Below, one piece after another: positions 4,245 through 10,389 of a stretch of DNA of 10,449 bases (its first letter is position 1; each line of letters begins with the position of its first letter). Below the pieces are notes generated by a model. That model had not been told where the DNA came from, searched no databases, and saw nothing but the letters and a program-made list of their open reading frames with translations. The stretch comes from Candidatus Altarchaeum sp. (GTDB lineage Archaea; Altiarchaeota; Altiarchaeia; Altiarchaeales; Altiarchaeaceae), in NCBI GenBank assembly GCA_018260755.1, contig JAGTWP010000017.1, positions 15,352 through 25,800 of the forward strand, read 5' to 3'. The position numbers and the translations under genes are program-made.

Positions 4245-7200
4245 CTATACGAACAACTTTTCAATATCTTCCCTGCCTAATTTCTTGAAAATCCCTTCGT
4301 CAACTGCAATCACATTCTTAACAAGGTTCAGTTTGCTTTCCTGAAGCAAGAGTATTTTTTCTTCAATGCTGTCTTTTGTAATTGTTTTATAAACGAATAT
4401 GTTTTTATTCTGTCCTATCCTGTGTGTTCTGTCCATTGCCTGCATCTCAGCAGCGGGATTCCACCACGGATCAACAATAAACACATAATCTGCTTCGGTG
4501 AGATTCAAACCCAGTCCACCGGCTTTCAAACTGATGAGAAATGCACTTATGTTTGAATCATTCTGAAACTGCTCTACAACAGATTTTCTGTTTGTGGTGC
4601 TTCCGTCAAGATAGGAAAATTTTATACCTTTTCTTTCAAATTCATTTCTGAAGACATGCAACATCTTGACAAACGAAGAAAAAACAAGGACTTTATGCCC
4701 CCCGGCAATGACTTCCTCAATTTGTTTCATGAGCATGTTTAATTTACCTGACCCTCCTGTGTATCTTTCATCAACAAGCACGGGATGATTGCATATCTGT
4801 CTTAATTTTATAAGTCCCTGCAATATCTTAAATCTGGATTTCATGAAACCTCCGGCATTTATCGCATCCTCTATCTCTTTTTTGATTTTAAATTTCCATG
4901 CTTCATAAATTTCTCTTTGTTCCGGCTCCATCTCGCAGTAGGATGTGAAAATTTGTTTTTCAGGAAGTTCCTTTGCAACCGTTTCTTTCTTCCTCATCAG
5001 TAAAAAAGGGTTTATTATGTTTTTAAGTGCATTCATTTTATGTTCGTCTTTCTCCTTTTCAATGCTCTTTGCAAATGTCTCTTTAAAATACTTTATGTTT
5101 CCCAATAGCCCTGGATTGAGAAATGCAAACTGCGACCATAATTCAAGGGAATTATTTTCTATCGGTGTTCCTGTCATCGCCAGTTTATGCTTTGCTTTAA
5201 GTTTATATATTTCTTTGGTGGTTTTTGAGAGGGGGTTCTTTATACTTTGTGATTCGTCAAGGATTACATAATGGAAGTCCTTATCTTTAAACATATCCGT
5301 ATCATTCCTTAAAGTCGCATAAGTAGTAAGAATTATATCCGCATTCTTTTTCCAAATTTTTGTGCTGTCACGAACTCTTTCAAGCCCGTGATGAACATAA
5401 ACATTGAGCGAGGGGGTAAATTTCCGAATTTCATTTACCCAGTTAAACACAAGAGATGCAGGAACTATTACAAGTGAAGGCATCTTAACCCCATGTTCTT
5501 TTTCGTAAAGCAGCAAGCTCAACACCTGAACCGTTTTGCCTAATCCCATCTCATCTGCAAGGCATCCCCCTAAACCAAACTCCTTCAGGAACTGCAGCCA
5601 GTCATAACCTGCTTTTTGATATGCTCTTAGTTCACCGTTTAGTTTTTTAGGGAGCGGAATATGTTTTATCTCCTTAAAACTGGAAAATTTATCTCTGATT
5701 TCTTTAAATTTTTCATCTGCCTTTGACATTTCTGAAATATCCAGCAGCGCCTCTATAATGGCAATCTGTGACCTTGATGCCCTTATGGTTTCATTTTTTT
5801 CATCCTGTTCCAAAAGACCTGCAATACCTGATAGTTTATCAAGCCATTTTTTCGGAATAACTCCTCTTCTTCCGTCACTCAATTTAATAAATCTCTCGTT
5901 GCTATTTATTGAAGAAATTATTTGATTAAAAGAAACATCCTCTTTTCCGAAAGATACACCCCCTTTTAAATCAAACCAGTCAATTCCGCTTGATATCTCT
6001 AATTTCAGCTTTGGCTCTTCCAAAGAAATTTTATTATTGACCAATTCGGATTTTCCGTAAATTTCATAACCCTTTGCGATTAAATCATTTGACACATCTG
6101 TAAGCCAGAGATATGGCTCTATATCAGGTATAAGCAAATCGCCGCGTTCTGCTGTGTGATGGTCAAGAAGTACTTTGAAATATTCCTTCTCTTTTTCCCG
6201 GTTCCTTGGTATCCTGATAATTTTTCCTTTTTCGTTTTTGAACACAATATCCTGCCTGTCGGTGTATAAGCTCTCGTGTTTATCATAGAGAAACCGCAGC
6301 TCAATACCAAATGATTCACCATAGTCCCTGAGATACAAACGGGGAATCGGCTCAAAATTTTGTTCTTCAATCTCATAATCCCTCGGAAGTGTAACCTTCC
6401 CTATTTTTGATAACTTATAATAGTATTTTTCAATAACATCATTTAGCTGGCCGAGTTCTATTTCCGCATCCGAAAATTCCGATATGTTCTTTATGATTTC
6501 AATGTACGAACATTCAATCTCAAATAAAATAAAATTATTCTTTTTATCATTATAGACAGAAACCCATAAAGGCTCTTTTCCGAGAAAATCAATATTCTTT
6601 TTATTAATCCGAAATTTTTCTTCGCCTTTATTTATCATTAATCTCAGGACTGCTTTTTTTCGATTTTTGTCCTCGCTAATATTGATCTCAATTTCACCTT
6701 TTTCGTTATAAAATATACAGTTCTGAAACGCCTGCGGGTCTTCATTGTATAAATTTCTCATTTCTGCCAACAACCTGCTGCTGTCTATTCCCTTAAATTT
6801 TGTCTCAACGAGCTTTTCAGATGAGGCAAGCCATCCTTTTTCATGCTCCAAATTCGTGATAAACAAATCAAAAATTTTTCTTCTGTTGGTAGGTATTGTG
6901 TCATAATATTCTCTTATAGTTTTAAGGGTTGTATCAGAAGGTTTTCCGAGAGCGCCTGATTTGAGAATACTTTTTTTTACTACGGATATAAAAAAGTAAT
7001 TGCCGTACTCGGATGTATGTTTTTCTACATTAAAATAAAACAAATATCTTTTTTCATGATTTATTTTTGGTTTTTCAGGAAGGATCGAATCAACTTTGCT
7101 AATGAAATTATAAAACTGTTCCGCACGGATTTCGGACATAAATTCTTCCTTCACTTCTGATATTTGTTTTTTGTTTTTTTGCAGAAATAAAGCAAGCAAT

Positions 7201-7865
7201 GATGCAGCGGCGTGTTTGCATCTTGAGTGTTCATATTGAGGATGGCAATCACAGCGCGTATAGAGTGAAAAGATATTATCAAATCCCCGTCTCGATGTGT
7301 GAACTTTTATTTTACCCCGCATGGATCGCATTTCCCACGAATAAACAGCTGTGATTTTTTCATCTATTTCCGTAAGCATTTCTCTGTCAGTTAAGGACTT
7401 TATTTCTATCTTCTTTTTTTCCAATATATCAAATGCATCGGAAACAGCTTCTTTTGAAGTGCATTTTATTATATCCTTCAGGGCGAAATTCCATGAGTCC
7501 TCTTCTTTGTTATCGCCTTTATTTTCTTTATCCGGTGCGTTTTCTTCCGAAGGACGATTTAAATTATCATTAATTGTGTCTTTGTATTCGTATAAAAATT
7601 TAAGTAAAACCGCAATAACATGTTTGCAGCCATTACCATCATAAGGACATGTGCAGTTGCTGTGAATTGCATTCTTAACAAGAGTGATATTAACATTATA
7701 TATGCCATAGTGTCCTTCAACCCGTGCATAAATTTTTTTACCTCCTTCTGTTACATTCATAAATTTTATATTTCCATCATAATAATATCTTTTTCCTCGC
7801 TCAAATATGTTTGTTGAATCCGCGTATGCTCTGATTTTATTTTCGGTGAGTTCGTTTAAATCCAT
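4245..7865 (-). CDS. SNF2-family DNA-dependent ATPase with two SWIM zinc-binding motifs
   Basis: This 1206-residue Swi2/Snf2 superfamily-2 ATPase probably translocates on double-stranded DNA and remodels bound proteins; its target is unknown. Residues 71-82 (C71, C73, C80, H82) and 205-218 (C205, C207, C216, H218) both fit the SWIM pattern CxC...CxH, joined by an acidic linker at about 100-125. Residues about 250-735 match no motif I recognise and probably include the helicase-associated region of the bacterial SNF2 family. The motor begins near 745: DEMGLGKT (771-778, Walker A), DESQ (870-873, motif II), MTGTPIENN (897-905, motif III), LKAGGLGLNL (1113-1122, motif V) and DRTHRIGQ (1145-1152, motif VI). 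All motor motifs are intact. It is the first gene of the minus-strand block, 41 bases ahead of the phosphatase. Its start codon lies in a 35-base duplication. The architecture is best known from bacteria, so transfer is possible. Confidence 0.95.
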   Translation of the reverse strand: MDLNELTENKIRAYADSTNIFERGKRYYYDGNIKFMNVTEGGKKIYARVEGHYGIYNVNITLVKNAIHSNCTCPYDGNGCKHVIAVLLKFLYEYKDTINDNLNRPSEENAPDKENKGDNKEEDSWNFALKDIIKCTSKEAVSDAFDILEKKKIEIKSLTDREMLTEIDEKITAVYSWEMRSMRGKIKVHTSRRGFDNIFSLYTRCDCHPQYEHSRCKHAAASLLALFLQKNKKQISEVKEEFMSEIRAEQFYNFISKVDSILPEKPKINHEKRYLFYFNVEKHTSEYGNYFFISVVKKSILKSGALGKPSDTTLKTIREYYDTIPTNRRKIFDLFITNLEHEKGWLASSEKLVETKFKGIDSSRLLAEMRNLYNEDPQAFQNCIFYNEKGEIEINISEDKNRKKAVLRLMINKGEEKFRINKKNIDFLGKEPLWVSVYNDKKNNFILFEIECSYIEIIKNISEFSDAEIELGQLNDVIEKYYYKLSKIGKVTLPRDYEIEEQNFEPIPRLYLRDYGESFGIELRFLYDKHESLYTDRQDIVFKNEKGKIIRIPRNREKEKEYFKVLLDHHTAERGDLLIPDIEPYLWLTDVSNDLIAKGYEIYGKSELVNNKISLEEPKLKLEISSGIDWFDLKGGVSFGKEDVSFNQIISSINSNERFIKLSDGRRGVIPKKWLDKLSGIAGLLEQDEKNETIRASRSQIAIIEALLDISEMSKADEKFKEIRDKFSSFKEIKHIPLPKKLNGELRAYQKAGYDWLQFLKEFGLGGCLADEMGLGKTVQVLSLLLYEKEHGVKMPSLVIVPASLVFNWVNEIRKFTPSLNVYVHHGLERVRDSTKIWKKNADIILTTYATLRNDTDMFKDKDFHYVILDESQSIKNPLSKTTKEIYKLKAKHKLAMTGTPIENNSLELWSQFAFLNPGLLGNIKYFKETFAKSIEKEKDEHKMNALKNIINPFLLMRKKETVAKELPEKQIFTSYCEMEPEQREIYEAWKFKIKKEIEDAINAGGFMKSRFKILQGLIKLRQICNHPVLVDERYTGGSGKLNMLMKQIEEVIAGGHKVLVFSSFVKMLHVFRNEFERKGIKFSYLDGSTTNRKSVVEQFQNDSNISAFLISLKAGGLGLNLTEADYVFIVDPWWNPAAEMQAMDRTHRIGQNKNIFVYKTITKDSIEEKILLLQESKLNLVKNVIAVDEGIFKKLGREDIEKLFV

Positions 7866-7929
7866 CTTTGTTATTCCCCAATGTAAGAATTAAAATCCAT
7901 CTTTGTTATTCCCCAATGTAAGAATTAAA
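7858..7929. repeat. 35-bp tandem duplication spanning the SNF2 start codon
   Basis: Two perfect copies with a 35-base period run from 7858 to 7929 (72 bases in total), joined without a spacer. The proximal copy carries the real start codon of the SNF2 gene (7865) with its first codons, and the distal copy carries an identical ATG context at 7900. Because 35 is not a multiple of three, the distal ATG is out of frame. Perfect identity suggests a recent duplication or one kept by selection. Confidence 0.95.
7871..7900 (-). other. Nine-codon upstream ORF created by the duplication
   Basis: On the minus strand the distal repeat copy reads ATG, eight more codons (peptide MDFNSYIGE), then TAA at 7873-7871, ending 5 bases before the SNF2 ATG. 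Its start context is identical to that of the SNF2 gene. If the transcript begins upstream of 7900, ribosomes would meet this start first and could then re-initiate. The ORF is certain in sequence; its translation is speculation. Confidence 0.3.
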
Positions 7930-8027: not shown

Positions 8028-8834
8028 ATGCCAACAGTAGAATTTAATACATCCGAATTAGTTGAATTGATTGGAATTAAAGATATAAATTTTTTGAGAG
8101 AAAGGATTCCTATGCTCGGGGTTGATTTGGAATCCATTGACAGCGAGAAAGCAATAATGGAAATTTTTCCGAACAGGCCTGATATGTTAGGCATAGAGGG
8201 ATTTTCCAGGGCATTGAGAAATTTTTTAGGTGTAAAAAAAGAGGTCGGAATATATGAAGTTAAAGAAGAAAAAGAAGGTGCGGAAAGGAAAATTTTTGTT
8301 GACAAATCCGTTAAAACAATCAGGCCATTTATATCTTCTGCAATAGTAAAAAATTTAACCATAACGGATGCACGACTGAAATCCCTGATGAATATTCAGG
8401 AAAAATTGCACATCACACACGGGAGGAACAGAAAAAAGGTTGCAATCGGAATACATAATTCAGATGTTGTTAAATTTCCTGTTACTTATAAAGCAGTAAA
8501 ACCAAAAGAGTACAAATTTGTCCCGTTAAATTTTAATGAGCTTATGGATTTGGATGAAATTCTAAAAATACATCCGAAGGGAATTACATACGGAAAAATA
8601 ATCTCTGAATTTGATAAATTTCCCCTACTCGTTGATGCAGACAATAATGCAATTTCAATGCCTCCGATTATAAATGCCGCTCGCACAAAGGTTACAGCAG
8701 AAACAAAAAATTTATTTATAGAGGTTACGGGAACAAATCAGTATGCCGTTGAAAAAGCATTGGCAATTGTCGCCTGCACACTCGCGGATATGGGTGGAGA
8801 AATTTACAATATGAGCATAAAGTTGAAACATTAA
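8028..8834 (+). CDS. pheT: Phenylalanyl-tRNA synthetase beta subunit, N-terminal half only (B1 and B3/B4 editing module)
   Basis: Full PheRS beta supplies tRNA binding, editing of mischarged Tyr-tRNA(Phe) and a structural partner for the catalytic alpha subunit. This 268-residue protein begins like archaeal PheT (MPTVEF) and carries the conserved NRPDMLGIEGFSRAL (49-63). It then has the B3/B4 signatures: RPFISSAIV (99-107), IQEKLH (123-128), GRNRKKVAIGIH (132-143), KYG-like ITYGKII (186-192), SMPPIIN (210-216) and LFIEVTGT (229-236). It stops at residue 268, where B5 should begin; archaeal PheT proteins are about 550 residues. purF starts 4 bases later, so no C-terminal half or frameshifted remnant exists here. 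It may be one half of a split beta subunit, a free-standing editing protein, or a decayed paralogue. The ATG lacks a Shine-Dalgarno sequence and has the TAAAAATG context. Confidence 0.9.
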   Translation: MPTVEFNTSELVELIGIKDINFLRERIPMLGVDLESIDSEKAIMEIFPNRPDMLGIEGFSRALRNFLGVKKEVGIYEVKEEKEGAERKIFVDKSVKTIRPFISSAIVKNLTITDARLKSLMNIQEKLHITHGRNRKKVAIGIHNSDVVKFPVTYKAVKPKEYKFVPLNFNELMDLDEILKIHPKGITYGKIISEFDKFPLLVDADNNAISMPPIINAARTKVTAETKNLFIEVTGTNQYAVEKALAIVACTLADMGGEIYNMSIKLKH

Positions 8835-8838
8835 AAAA

Positions 8839-10389
8839 ATGAATGGTAGAAAAGTTAAGGAGGCATGCGGAATCTTCGGAATTGCAGCAAAAGAAAGCAC
8901 AAATGTTTACGGTAAAATTTATTACGGACTCTTTGCTTTACAGCATCGCGGACAGGAATCAGCAGGAATAGCGACATCAAAAATAGATACAGATAATACA
9001 AATAATAGAGATAATACAAATAATAGGGATAATACAAATAAGAGTATAAAAATAGAAATAGTTAAAGATATGGGTATTGTTCCCGAGGCATTGCGAAGTA
9101 AATTTATTGAAGGAAATATAGGAATTGGACATGTAAGATATTCAACAACCGGCTCGTCATCCGTAGAAAATTCCCAGCCGATTCAGATAAAGTGCGGTGA
9201 GGAAATTTTTGCAATCGCACATAACGGAAATATTATAAATACGGAAGAAATCAGACAAAAGTTAAAAGGTGCGACATTTCTTACGACAACTGACAGCGAG
9301 GTAATTGCAAATTTAATTGCACACAATTATGCAATAAACAAAAATTTTCTTGAATCCATAAAGTTATCAATGAATGAAATTGTCGGTTCTTATTGTTTGG
9401 TAATTTTATATAAAAACAAAGTTATTGCAGTAAGAGATCCGAAAGGATTCCGGCCGCTGGTTATCGGAAAAAACGAAGAAGGTGAAATTTGTATCGCATC
9501 GGAAACATGTGCATTAGACGCAATCGGTTTTTCATACATCCGTGATGTTGAGCCGGGAGAAATTTTTGTTGTAGAGTGCATATCAAAAAAAGAAAATCAT
9601 ATAACTTTCAGCGGATTTGAAAACAACACTCAAAACCAAAACTATTCTCAAAACGATAATAATAAAATTTCATCATTAAAAATTTCATCATCAACCTATT
9701 CTCTCTTAAAAGACAAAATTTCCTATTGCATGTTTGAGTATGTTTATTTTGCCAGGGCCGATAGTGCGATTAACGGGGCATCCATATATCAAATCAGGAA
9801 GGACCTGGGAAAAATTTTAGCAAGCGAAAGTTATGTTGATGCGGATATTGTTATTCCTGTTCCTGATTCCGGAATTACCGCTGCAATCGGATATGCAGAG
9901 TGGTGTATTGAAAATCACAAGCGAATCGGTTATAGCGAAGGTCTTATGAAAAACAGATATTCAGGAAGGACATTTATCCTTCCGAATCAGGCGGACAGAG
10001 AAAAGGAATTATGCACAAAATTAAATCCGATAAAAACAGAGATTGAAGGGAAAAGAATAATTCTTATTGATGATTCCATTGTAAGAGGCACAACCATAAA
10101 GCGAATTATAAAAATTTTAAGAGATAAAGGAGCAAAAGAGGTTCATATAAGGGTTTCGTGTCCACCTATAAAATTTCCATGTAAATTCGGAATAGATATG
10201 CAGACGGCAAAGGAATTCATAGCAAGTGATAATAGTGTTGATGAAATTGCGGCATTGATAGGAGCGGATTCTTTGCAATATATAAGTATGGAAGGATTAG
10301 TAAGAGCAATCGGAACAAAAAATTTATGCGATGCATGCCTGACGGGAATTTCTCCGGTAATTGAAAAGCAGATGAAATTAAGCGAGTAA
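8839..10389 (+). CDS. purF: Amidophosphoribosyltransferase (glutamine PRPP amidotransferase)
   Basis: PurF converts PRPP and glutamine to 5-phosphoribosylamine, the first committed step of purine synthesis. The Ntn-type glutaminase domain starts at the nucleophile Cys10 in ACGIFGI, implying removal of a 9-residue propeptide. It continues with LQHRGQESAGI (34-44), GHVRYSTTG (97-105), AHNGNI (127-132), TTDSE (150-154) and RDPKGFRPLVIG (199-210). The phosphoribosyltransferase domain has FEYVYFARADS from residue 299 and the PRPP loop LIDDSIVRGTT (409-419). Cysteines 297, 448, 497 and 500 match the four ligands of the [4Fe-4S] cluster in the Bacillus subtilis type enzyme. At 516 residues it is longer than most; the excess sits in two low-complexity inserts, about 48-69 and 250-292. 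It lies 4 bases after pheT, so the two are probably co-transcribed. Confidence 0.96.
   Translation: MNGRKVKEACGIFGIAAKESTNVYGKIYYGLFALQHRGQESAGIATSKIDTDNTNNRDNTNNRDNTNKSIKIEIVKDMGIVPEALRSKFIEGNIGIGHVRYSTTGSSSVENSQPIQIKCGEEIFAIAHNGNIINTEEIRQKLKGATFLTTTDSEVIANLIAHNYAINKNFLESIKLSMNEIVGSYCLVILYKNKVIAVRDPKGFRPLVIGKNEEGEICIASETCALDAIGFSYIRDVEPGEIFVVECISKKENHITFSGFENNTQNQNYSQNDNNKISSLKISSSTYSLLKDKISYCMFEYVYFARADSAINGASIYQIRKDLGKILASESYVDADIVIPVPDSGITAAIGYAEWCIENHKRIGYSEGLMKNRYSGRTFILPNQADREKELCTKLNPIKTEIEGKRIILIDDSIVRGTTIKRIIKILRDKGAKEVHIRVSCPPIKFPCKFGIDMQTAKEFIASDNSVDEIAALIGADSLQYISMEGLVRAIGTKNLCDACLTGISPVIEKQMKLSE
8992..9045. repeat. 18-bp tandem repeat, three copies, inside purF
   Basis: Three 18-base units (8992-9009, 9010-9027, 9028-9045), each beginning GATAATACAAATAA, encode DNTNNR, DNTNNR and DNTNKS (residues 52-69). 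The first two differ by one base and the third is slightly more diverged. The insert sits between the first strands of the glutaminase domain, where relatives have a short turn, so it is probably a tolerated surface loop grown by slippage. Confidence 0.92.
9664..9693. repeat. 15-bp tandem duplication inside purF
   Basis: Two 15-base units, each starting AAAATTTCATCAT, encode KISSL and KISSS (residues 276-285). They lie in the Asn/Ser-rich insert between the glutaminase domain and the phosphoribosyltransferase domain. The period is a multiple of three, so the frame is kept. Confidence 0.75.

What the first reader, a model, noticed from the sequence alone, without database searches (positions are those of the whole stretch)
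8028..8834. pheT is cut exactly at a domain border: B1-B3/B4 without B5 and the C-terminal half
The gene encodes recognisable archaeal PheRS beta signatures through the end of the B3/B4 editing module and then stops with TAA; purF starts 4 bases later. The reading frames after the stop belong to purF, so a simple point frameshift or premature stop is excluded. A break this clean suggests either a split essential synthetase subunit with its other half encoded elsewhere, or an independent trans-editing protein derived from PheT. A free-standing N-terminal PheT half is, to my knowledge, not a standard arrangement.
Basis: partly seen in the sequence, partly recalled or inferred. Interest (0 to 1): 0.72.

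Follow-up and report, generated by a model that had tools for sequence, protein, structure and literature searches.

The report
Split phenylalanyl-tRNA synthetase beta subunit (Altiarchaeota)
In this archaeon (Candidatus Altarchaeum group) one essential protein-synthesis enzyme subunit, normally encoded by a single gene, is encoded as two separate genes far apart in the genome; this is real and ancient but was already reported for the group in 2016.

Summary
Window 8028-8834 (+) is an intact ORF for the B1-B3/B4 half of archaeal PheRS beta (pheT), ending 4 nt before purF. The other half (B5 to the end, 303 aa) is a separate mid-contig gene in the same genome (G000:C49), in the row HMG-CoA synthase - pheT-C - aRF1. 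No full-length pheT was found there. The halves tile the human beta subunit as 1-293 and 300-589, so practically nothing is lost. 28 of 29 genomes of the class carry only halves; in a single-contig genome they lie 355 kb apart, so misassembly is excluded. Only G004, sister to all split members, keeps a full-length gene: one fission within the class. Both halves are under purifying selection, editing residues are kept, and one full-length PheS is present. Best explanation: a three-gene PheRS whose betaN and betaC associate non-covalently with alpha. This is the 'split pheT' already described as a synapomorphy of Altiarchaeales (Bird et al. 2016, PMC4975002). Added here: distant loci on one chromosome, class-wide extent, the intact sister G004, and no true split among 222 genomes of two other archaeal phyla. 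Real, already known, modest interest.

The parts
8028..8834 (+). pheT N-half (PheRS beta-N: B1 and B3/B4 editing module), 268 aa, complete ORF ending in TAA
   Evidence: TIGR00471 positions 1-259/551, 306 bits; fold match to 2cxi residues 2-270, Z 31.6
8625..8735 (+). core of the editing site (PLLVDADNNAISMPPIINAARTKVTAETKNLFIEVTG), with the equivalents of P. horikoshii L202, S211, N217, D234 (E here) and T236; coordinates approximate
   Evidence: alignment to 2cxi and table over 24 N-halves
8839..10389 (+). purF, amidophosphoribosyltransferase: unrelated downstream neighbour; adjacency not conserved
   Evidence: TIGR01134 464 bits; neighbourhood comparison
4245..7865 (-). SNF2/SWIM helicase, divergently oriented upstream neighbour, also seen next to the N-half in G001 and G003 of the same genus
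   Evidence: Pfam SNF2-rel_dom, Helicase_C, SWIM

Best explanation
It is one half of a genuinely split, functional archaeal phenylalanyl-tRNA synthetase beta subunit. An ancient fission, after the G004 lineage had branched off within the class, cut pheT in the linker between B3/B4 and B5. The two pieces became independent genes at distant loci. The N-half protein (B1-B3/B4, Tyr-tRNAPhe editing) and the C-half protein (B5-B6/B7, the catalytic-like module that pairs with PheS) are made separately and assemble without a covalent bond with PheS into an (alpha betaN betaC)2 enzyme. Shown: the gene structure, its conservation, complete domain coverage, selection, and a single origin on the gene tree. 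Inferred: the assembly, its stoichiometry, and that both charging and editing work.
For: C-half at G000:C49:10121-10996, TIGR00471 positions 267-549, 255 bits, mid-contig; no full-length copy. 28 of 29 class genomes carry only halves, G004 alone a full-length gene; G012 (one contig, 1.39 Mb) has N at 740,534 and C at 384,853; G010 has both on one contig 449 kb apart. The halves tile human beta 3l4g_B as 1-293 and 300-589; N-tail (median 12.5 aa past the GG anchor) plus C-lead (at least 17 aa before the YVN anchor) equals the 26-32 aa of intact genes. Split genes form one clade (99/96), G004 is its sister (98/92). dN/dS 0.14-0.20 (N) and 0.22-0.30 (C) within the genus. Editing residues kept. 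One full-length PheS of 497 aa. Reads and several assemblers supported the split in earlier genomes (PMC4975002).
Against: No biochemical or proteomic evidence that the two proteins meet or that the enzyme is active. The N-half and C-half genes are never adjacent here, so no shared operon supports co-assembly. G000 is only 85% complete, so a missing full-length pheT cannot be ruled out from this genome alone; the class as a whole makes it very unlikely. No complex was modelled.
Confidence: 0.9

Rival explanations
1. Free-standing trans-editing factor: the N-half works alone as a Tyr-tRNAPhe deacylase, while PheS plus the C-half charge the tRNA without it.
For: The N-half is a complete editing module with a confidently predicted fold; free-standing editing proteins with the B3/B4 fold exist, e.g. 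the canavanyl-tRNAArg deacylase CtdA, which ranks among the structural matches (Z 10). The two genes are unlinked.
Against: B1 is retained as well as B3/B4, unlike CtdA, whose match covers model residues 85-266 only. The break removes nothing, as expected for parts of one enzyme. No intact pheT was found for it to be a paralogue of.
Confidence: 0.07
2. Assembly join or sequencing artefact at about position 8835.
For: The genome is a fragmented assembly (78 contigs), and contig ends do mimic half genes in other phyla (G215, G197, G221, G247, G191, G189).
Against: The same cut recurs across the class in contig interiors with stop codons, including one single-contig genome; the false halves in other phyla all abut contig ends.
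Confidence: 0.01
3. Decaying pseudogene: the pheT N-half is a remnant, its function replaced by another PheRS.
For: None found.
Against: dN/dS 0.14-0.20, many invariant columns in 20 N-halves, intact ORFs throughout, and no other PheT.
Confidence: 0.01

Closest known systems
Split pheT of Altiarchaeales (Bird et al. 2016, Front Microbiol 7:1221, PMC4975002)
   Same: Same group of archaea, same gene, same break just before B5, halves at non-adjacent loci, both in contig interiors.
   Different: Nothing essential. They could not place the two loci relative to each other and worked with seven genomes; here one single-contig genome places them 355 kb apart, 28 genomes carry the split, and one sister lineage (G004) still has the whole gene.
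Full-length archaeal/eukaryotic PheRS beta (TIGR00471; P. horikoshii 2cxi fragment, human 3l4g)
   Same: Domain content, fold and editing residues.
   Different: Encoded by one gene there, by two here.
Split aminoacyl-tRNA synthetases elsewhere (LeuRS of Aquifex aeolicus, AlaRS of Nanoarchaeota; cited in PMC4975002)
   Same: An essential synthetase encoded in two pieces that together cover the whole protein.
   Different: Different enzymes and independent events; not compared by sequence here.
CtdA, free-standing canavanyl-tRNAArg deacylase with a B3/B4-like fold (9f7e, 9mkl)
   Same: Fold of the B3/B4 editing module (Z about 10).
   Different: No B1, bacterial, different substrate, not one half of the host's own pheT.

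Membership tests
Archaeal PheRS beta subunit (TIGR00471) | Sequence match above the curated cut-off | tested here: met
   306 bits against 282.65 for the N-half alone; C-half 257 bits, below the cut-off on its own
Archaeal PheRS beta subunit (TIGR00471) | All domains B1, B3/B4, B5, B6/B7 present in the genome | tested here: met
   N-half positions 1-269, C-half 267-549 of 551; structure match 1-293 and 300-589 of 3l4g_B
Archaeal PheRS beta subunit (TIGR00471) | All domains in one polypeptide | tested here: not met
   two separate genes
Archaeal PheRS beta subunit (TIGR00471) | Editing-site residues of the archaeal/eukaryotic type | tested here: met
   equivalents of L202/S211/D234(E)/T236 in 24 N-halves; Asn217 equivalent invariant (residue named in PMC3275996)
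Archaeal PheRS beta subunit (TIGR00471) | Partner PheS encoded in the genome | tested here: met
   TIGR00468, 380 bits, 497-aa frame at G000:C77
Archaeal PheRS beta subunit (TIGR00471) | Assembles with PheS and charges/edits tRNAPhe | not testable with these tools
   needs biochemistry
Split pheT of Altiarchaeales (PMC4975002) | Break just before B5, halves at non-adjacent loci | tested here: met
Split pheT of Altiarchaeales (PMC4975002) | Organism belongs to Altiarchaeales | tested here: met
   closest named records are Candidatus Altarchaeum / Altiarchaeales at 74-78% identity; contigs of the same lengths appear in the same-genus handles G001-G003
Free-standing trans-editing factor (CtdA-like) | Exists beside a complete synthetase that does the charging | tested here: not met
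   no full-length pheT in G000 or in any of the 28 split genomes

The most novel reading that the evidence does not exclude
The fission uncoupled the editing half from the synthetic half, so that the N-half, expressed from its own locus, also acts as a free Tyr-tRNAPhe deacylase besides being a PheRS subunit, giving these archaea a separately tunable proofreading subunit.
Probability: 0.08. Interest if true: 0.6.

Novelty: already known. Interest (0 to 1): 0.3.

Why it matters
A near-universal, essential translation enzyme subunit has stayed split through the diversification of almost a whole class of archaea, which shows that the beta subunit tolerates separation of its editing and synthetic halves. 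It is a rare-event phylogenetic marker for Altiarchaeota, explains apparent pheT 'duplications' in marker-gene counts (as PMC4975002 noted), and offers a natural test of whether editing can be supplied in trans.

Tried and rejected
Misassembly: rejected by recurrence across the class and in a single-contig genome. Point frameshift or premature stop: rejected; the downstream sequence is purF and the C-half lies on another contig. Convergent splits elsewhere: 222 genomes of two other archaeal phyla searched; every half-length hit checked turned out to abut a contig end (G189, G191, G197, G215, G221, G247), so none is a true split. An apparent B1 copy at the start of the C-halves of this genus (custom HMM positions 12-59) was rejected as an extra domain: the aligned stretch is the B5 domain itself, which resembles B1 (the resemblance of B1 and B5 is from memory). 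Trans-splicing by a split intein: the N-half tail is only about 11-20 residues past the GG anchor and the C-halves begin with the intact linker, leaving no room for intein halves. Later papers on the split: full-text searches found only the 2016 paper; a survey of archaeal fusions and fissions (PMC11237513) does not mention PheT or Altiarchaeota in its main text. A joint model of betaN, betaC and alpha was not possible with the structure tool.

Full report
Observation. ORF 8028-8834 on the + strand is complete (ATG, TAA) and encodes 268 residues; purF starts at 8839, 4 nt after the stop. It matches the archaeal PheRS beta model TIGR00471 from position 1 to 259 of 551 with 306 bits, above the curated cut-off, and Pfam's B3/4 domain. 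An AlphaFold2 model from 20 natural N-halves (mean pLDDT 87.8) superposes over its whole length on residues 2-270 of the P. horikoshii beta fragment (2cxi, Z 31.6, rmsd 1.8 A over 262 residues) and on residues 1-293 of human cytosolic beta (Z 29.3). The protein is therefore a clean, complete B1-B3/B4 module.

The other half. The window lies in G000 (1.32 Mb, 78 contigs, 85% complete; contig C50). A search with TIGR00471 finds just two places: the window gene, and G000:C49:10121-10996 on the minus strand, positions 267-549 of the model, 255 bits, in the middle of a 25.9-kb contig. This is a 303-aa ORF between HMG-CoA synthase and the release factor aRF1, in tight same-strand order. Its model (pLDDT 86.2) covers human beta 300-589 (Z 26.9; the high rmsd of 6.6 A over the whole suggests a different tilt between B5 and B6/B7). 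Together the two proteins leave only about residues 294-299 of the human subunit unaccounted for. In the alignment, the N-halves stop a median 12.5 residues after the GG anchor and the C-halves have at least 17 residues before the YVN anchor of B5, while intact proteins have 26-32 residues between the same anchors. So the break falls in a linker and removes practically nothing.

How general it is. All 29 held genomes of the class were searched: 28 have only halves and one, G004, has a single full-length gene. 22 of the 28 show pieces of both halves; the others, incomplete assemblies, show one. G012 is a single contig of 1.39 Mb with the N-half at 740,534-741,328 (minus) and the C-half at 384,853-385,728 (plus), 355 kb apart; in G010 both lie on one contig 449 kb apart. 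In 222 genomes of two other archaeal phyla no interior split was found; the half-length matches abut contig ends. This is also a useful control: contig breaks look quite different from the halves of this class.

Origin. A maximum-likelihood tree of N+C sequences with 11 full-length archaeal PheTs (LG+C20, 560 columns) puts all 18 split genomes in one clade (99/96) with G004 as sister (98/92). With full-length genes in all other outgroups, the simplest reading is one fission after the G004 lineage diverged. A re-fusion in G004 is less simple but not formally excluded. The C-half is immediately adjacent to aRF1 in 17 of 21 loci, whereas the surroundings of the N-half vary (SNF2, purF, TrkH, a phosphomethylpyrimidine kinase gene).

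Function. Within the genus, dN/dS (NG86) is 0.14-0.20 for the N-half and 0.22-0.30 for the C-half, so both are under purifying selection (dS is high in some pairs, so values are rough). The residues equivalent to P. horikoshii L202, S211, D234 and T236 (their role recalled from the mutational work on the 2cxi protein, their place taken from the alignment) are kept in 24 N-halves with mild exchanges only (I/L/F, D/E), and the Asn217 equivalent, described as part of the editing site in PMC3275996, is invariant. One full-length PheS (497 aa) is present. The most likely mechanism is therefore non-covalent reassembly into an (alpha betaN betaC)2 PheRS in which the N-half brings B1 and the editing site and the C-half the B5 and catalytic-like domains. 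Assembly, stoichiometry and activity are inferred, not shown.

What is known. The nearest named genomes are Candidatus Altarchaeum and Altiarchaeales assemblies (74-78% identity). Bird et al. 2016 (PMC4975002) reported exactly this: pheT split just before B5 in Altiarchaeales, both halves in contig interiors and supported by reads and several assemblers, proposed as a synapomorphy; they could not determine the relative placement of the loci. No later paper on it was found in the held library, which lacks most subscription journals. The present data add the distant positions on one chromosome, the class-wide extent, a sister lineage with the intact gene, complete structural tiling and selection estimates. 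The same paper reported a second split gene, Dph2; this too is confirmed class-wide (positions 1-84 and 86-320), and its N part occurs as a separate 103-aa ORF even in G004, which suggests that the dph2 fission is the older one (the C part was not found in the incomplete G004).

Verdict. Interest is modest (0.3).

Noticed in passing
G000:C8:3585-3962 and G000:C21:4804-5463 (L087, L088); G004:C7:285-596 (L086): Dph2 (diphthamide synthase) is also split in nearly all class members, at model positions 84/86; the N part is a separate stop-terminated ORF even in G004, which still has an intact pheT, so the dph2 fission seems older than the pheT fission.
   Followed up: partly
L084:8939-12089 (G000:C49): The pheT C-half sits in a tight row HMG-CoA synthase - pheT-C - aRF1; adjacency to aRF1 holds in 17 of 21 class loci, so the C-half may be co-regulated with a translation termination factor.
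   Followed up: partly
window 7858-7927: A 35-bp tandem duplication (aatccatctttgttattccccaatgtaagaattaa) spans the start codon of the SNF2 gene, in the intergenic region shared with the divergent pheT N-half.
   Followed up: no
window 8987-9045: purF carries a low-complexity insertion (NTNNRDNTNNRDNTNK) near its N-terminus, encoded by short DNA repeats.
   Followed up: no
G000:C27:17001-17483 and equivalents in most class genomes: A second PheS-like class II synthetase (matches PheS positions 154-312, about 80 bits, frame of about 490-550 aa), possibly an O-phosphoseryl-tRNA synthetase.
   Followed up: no
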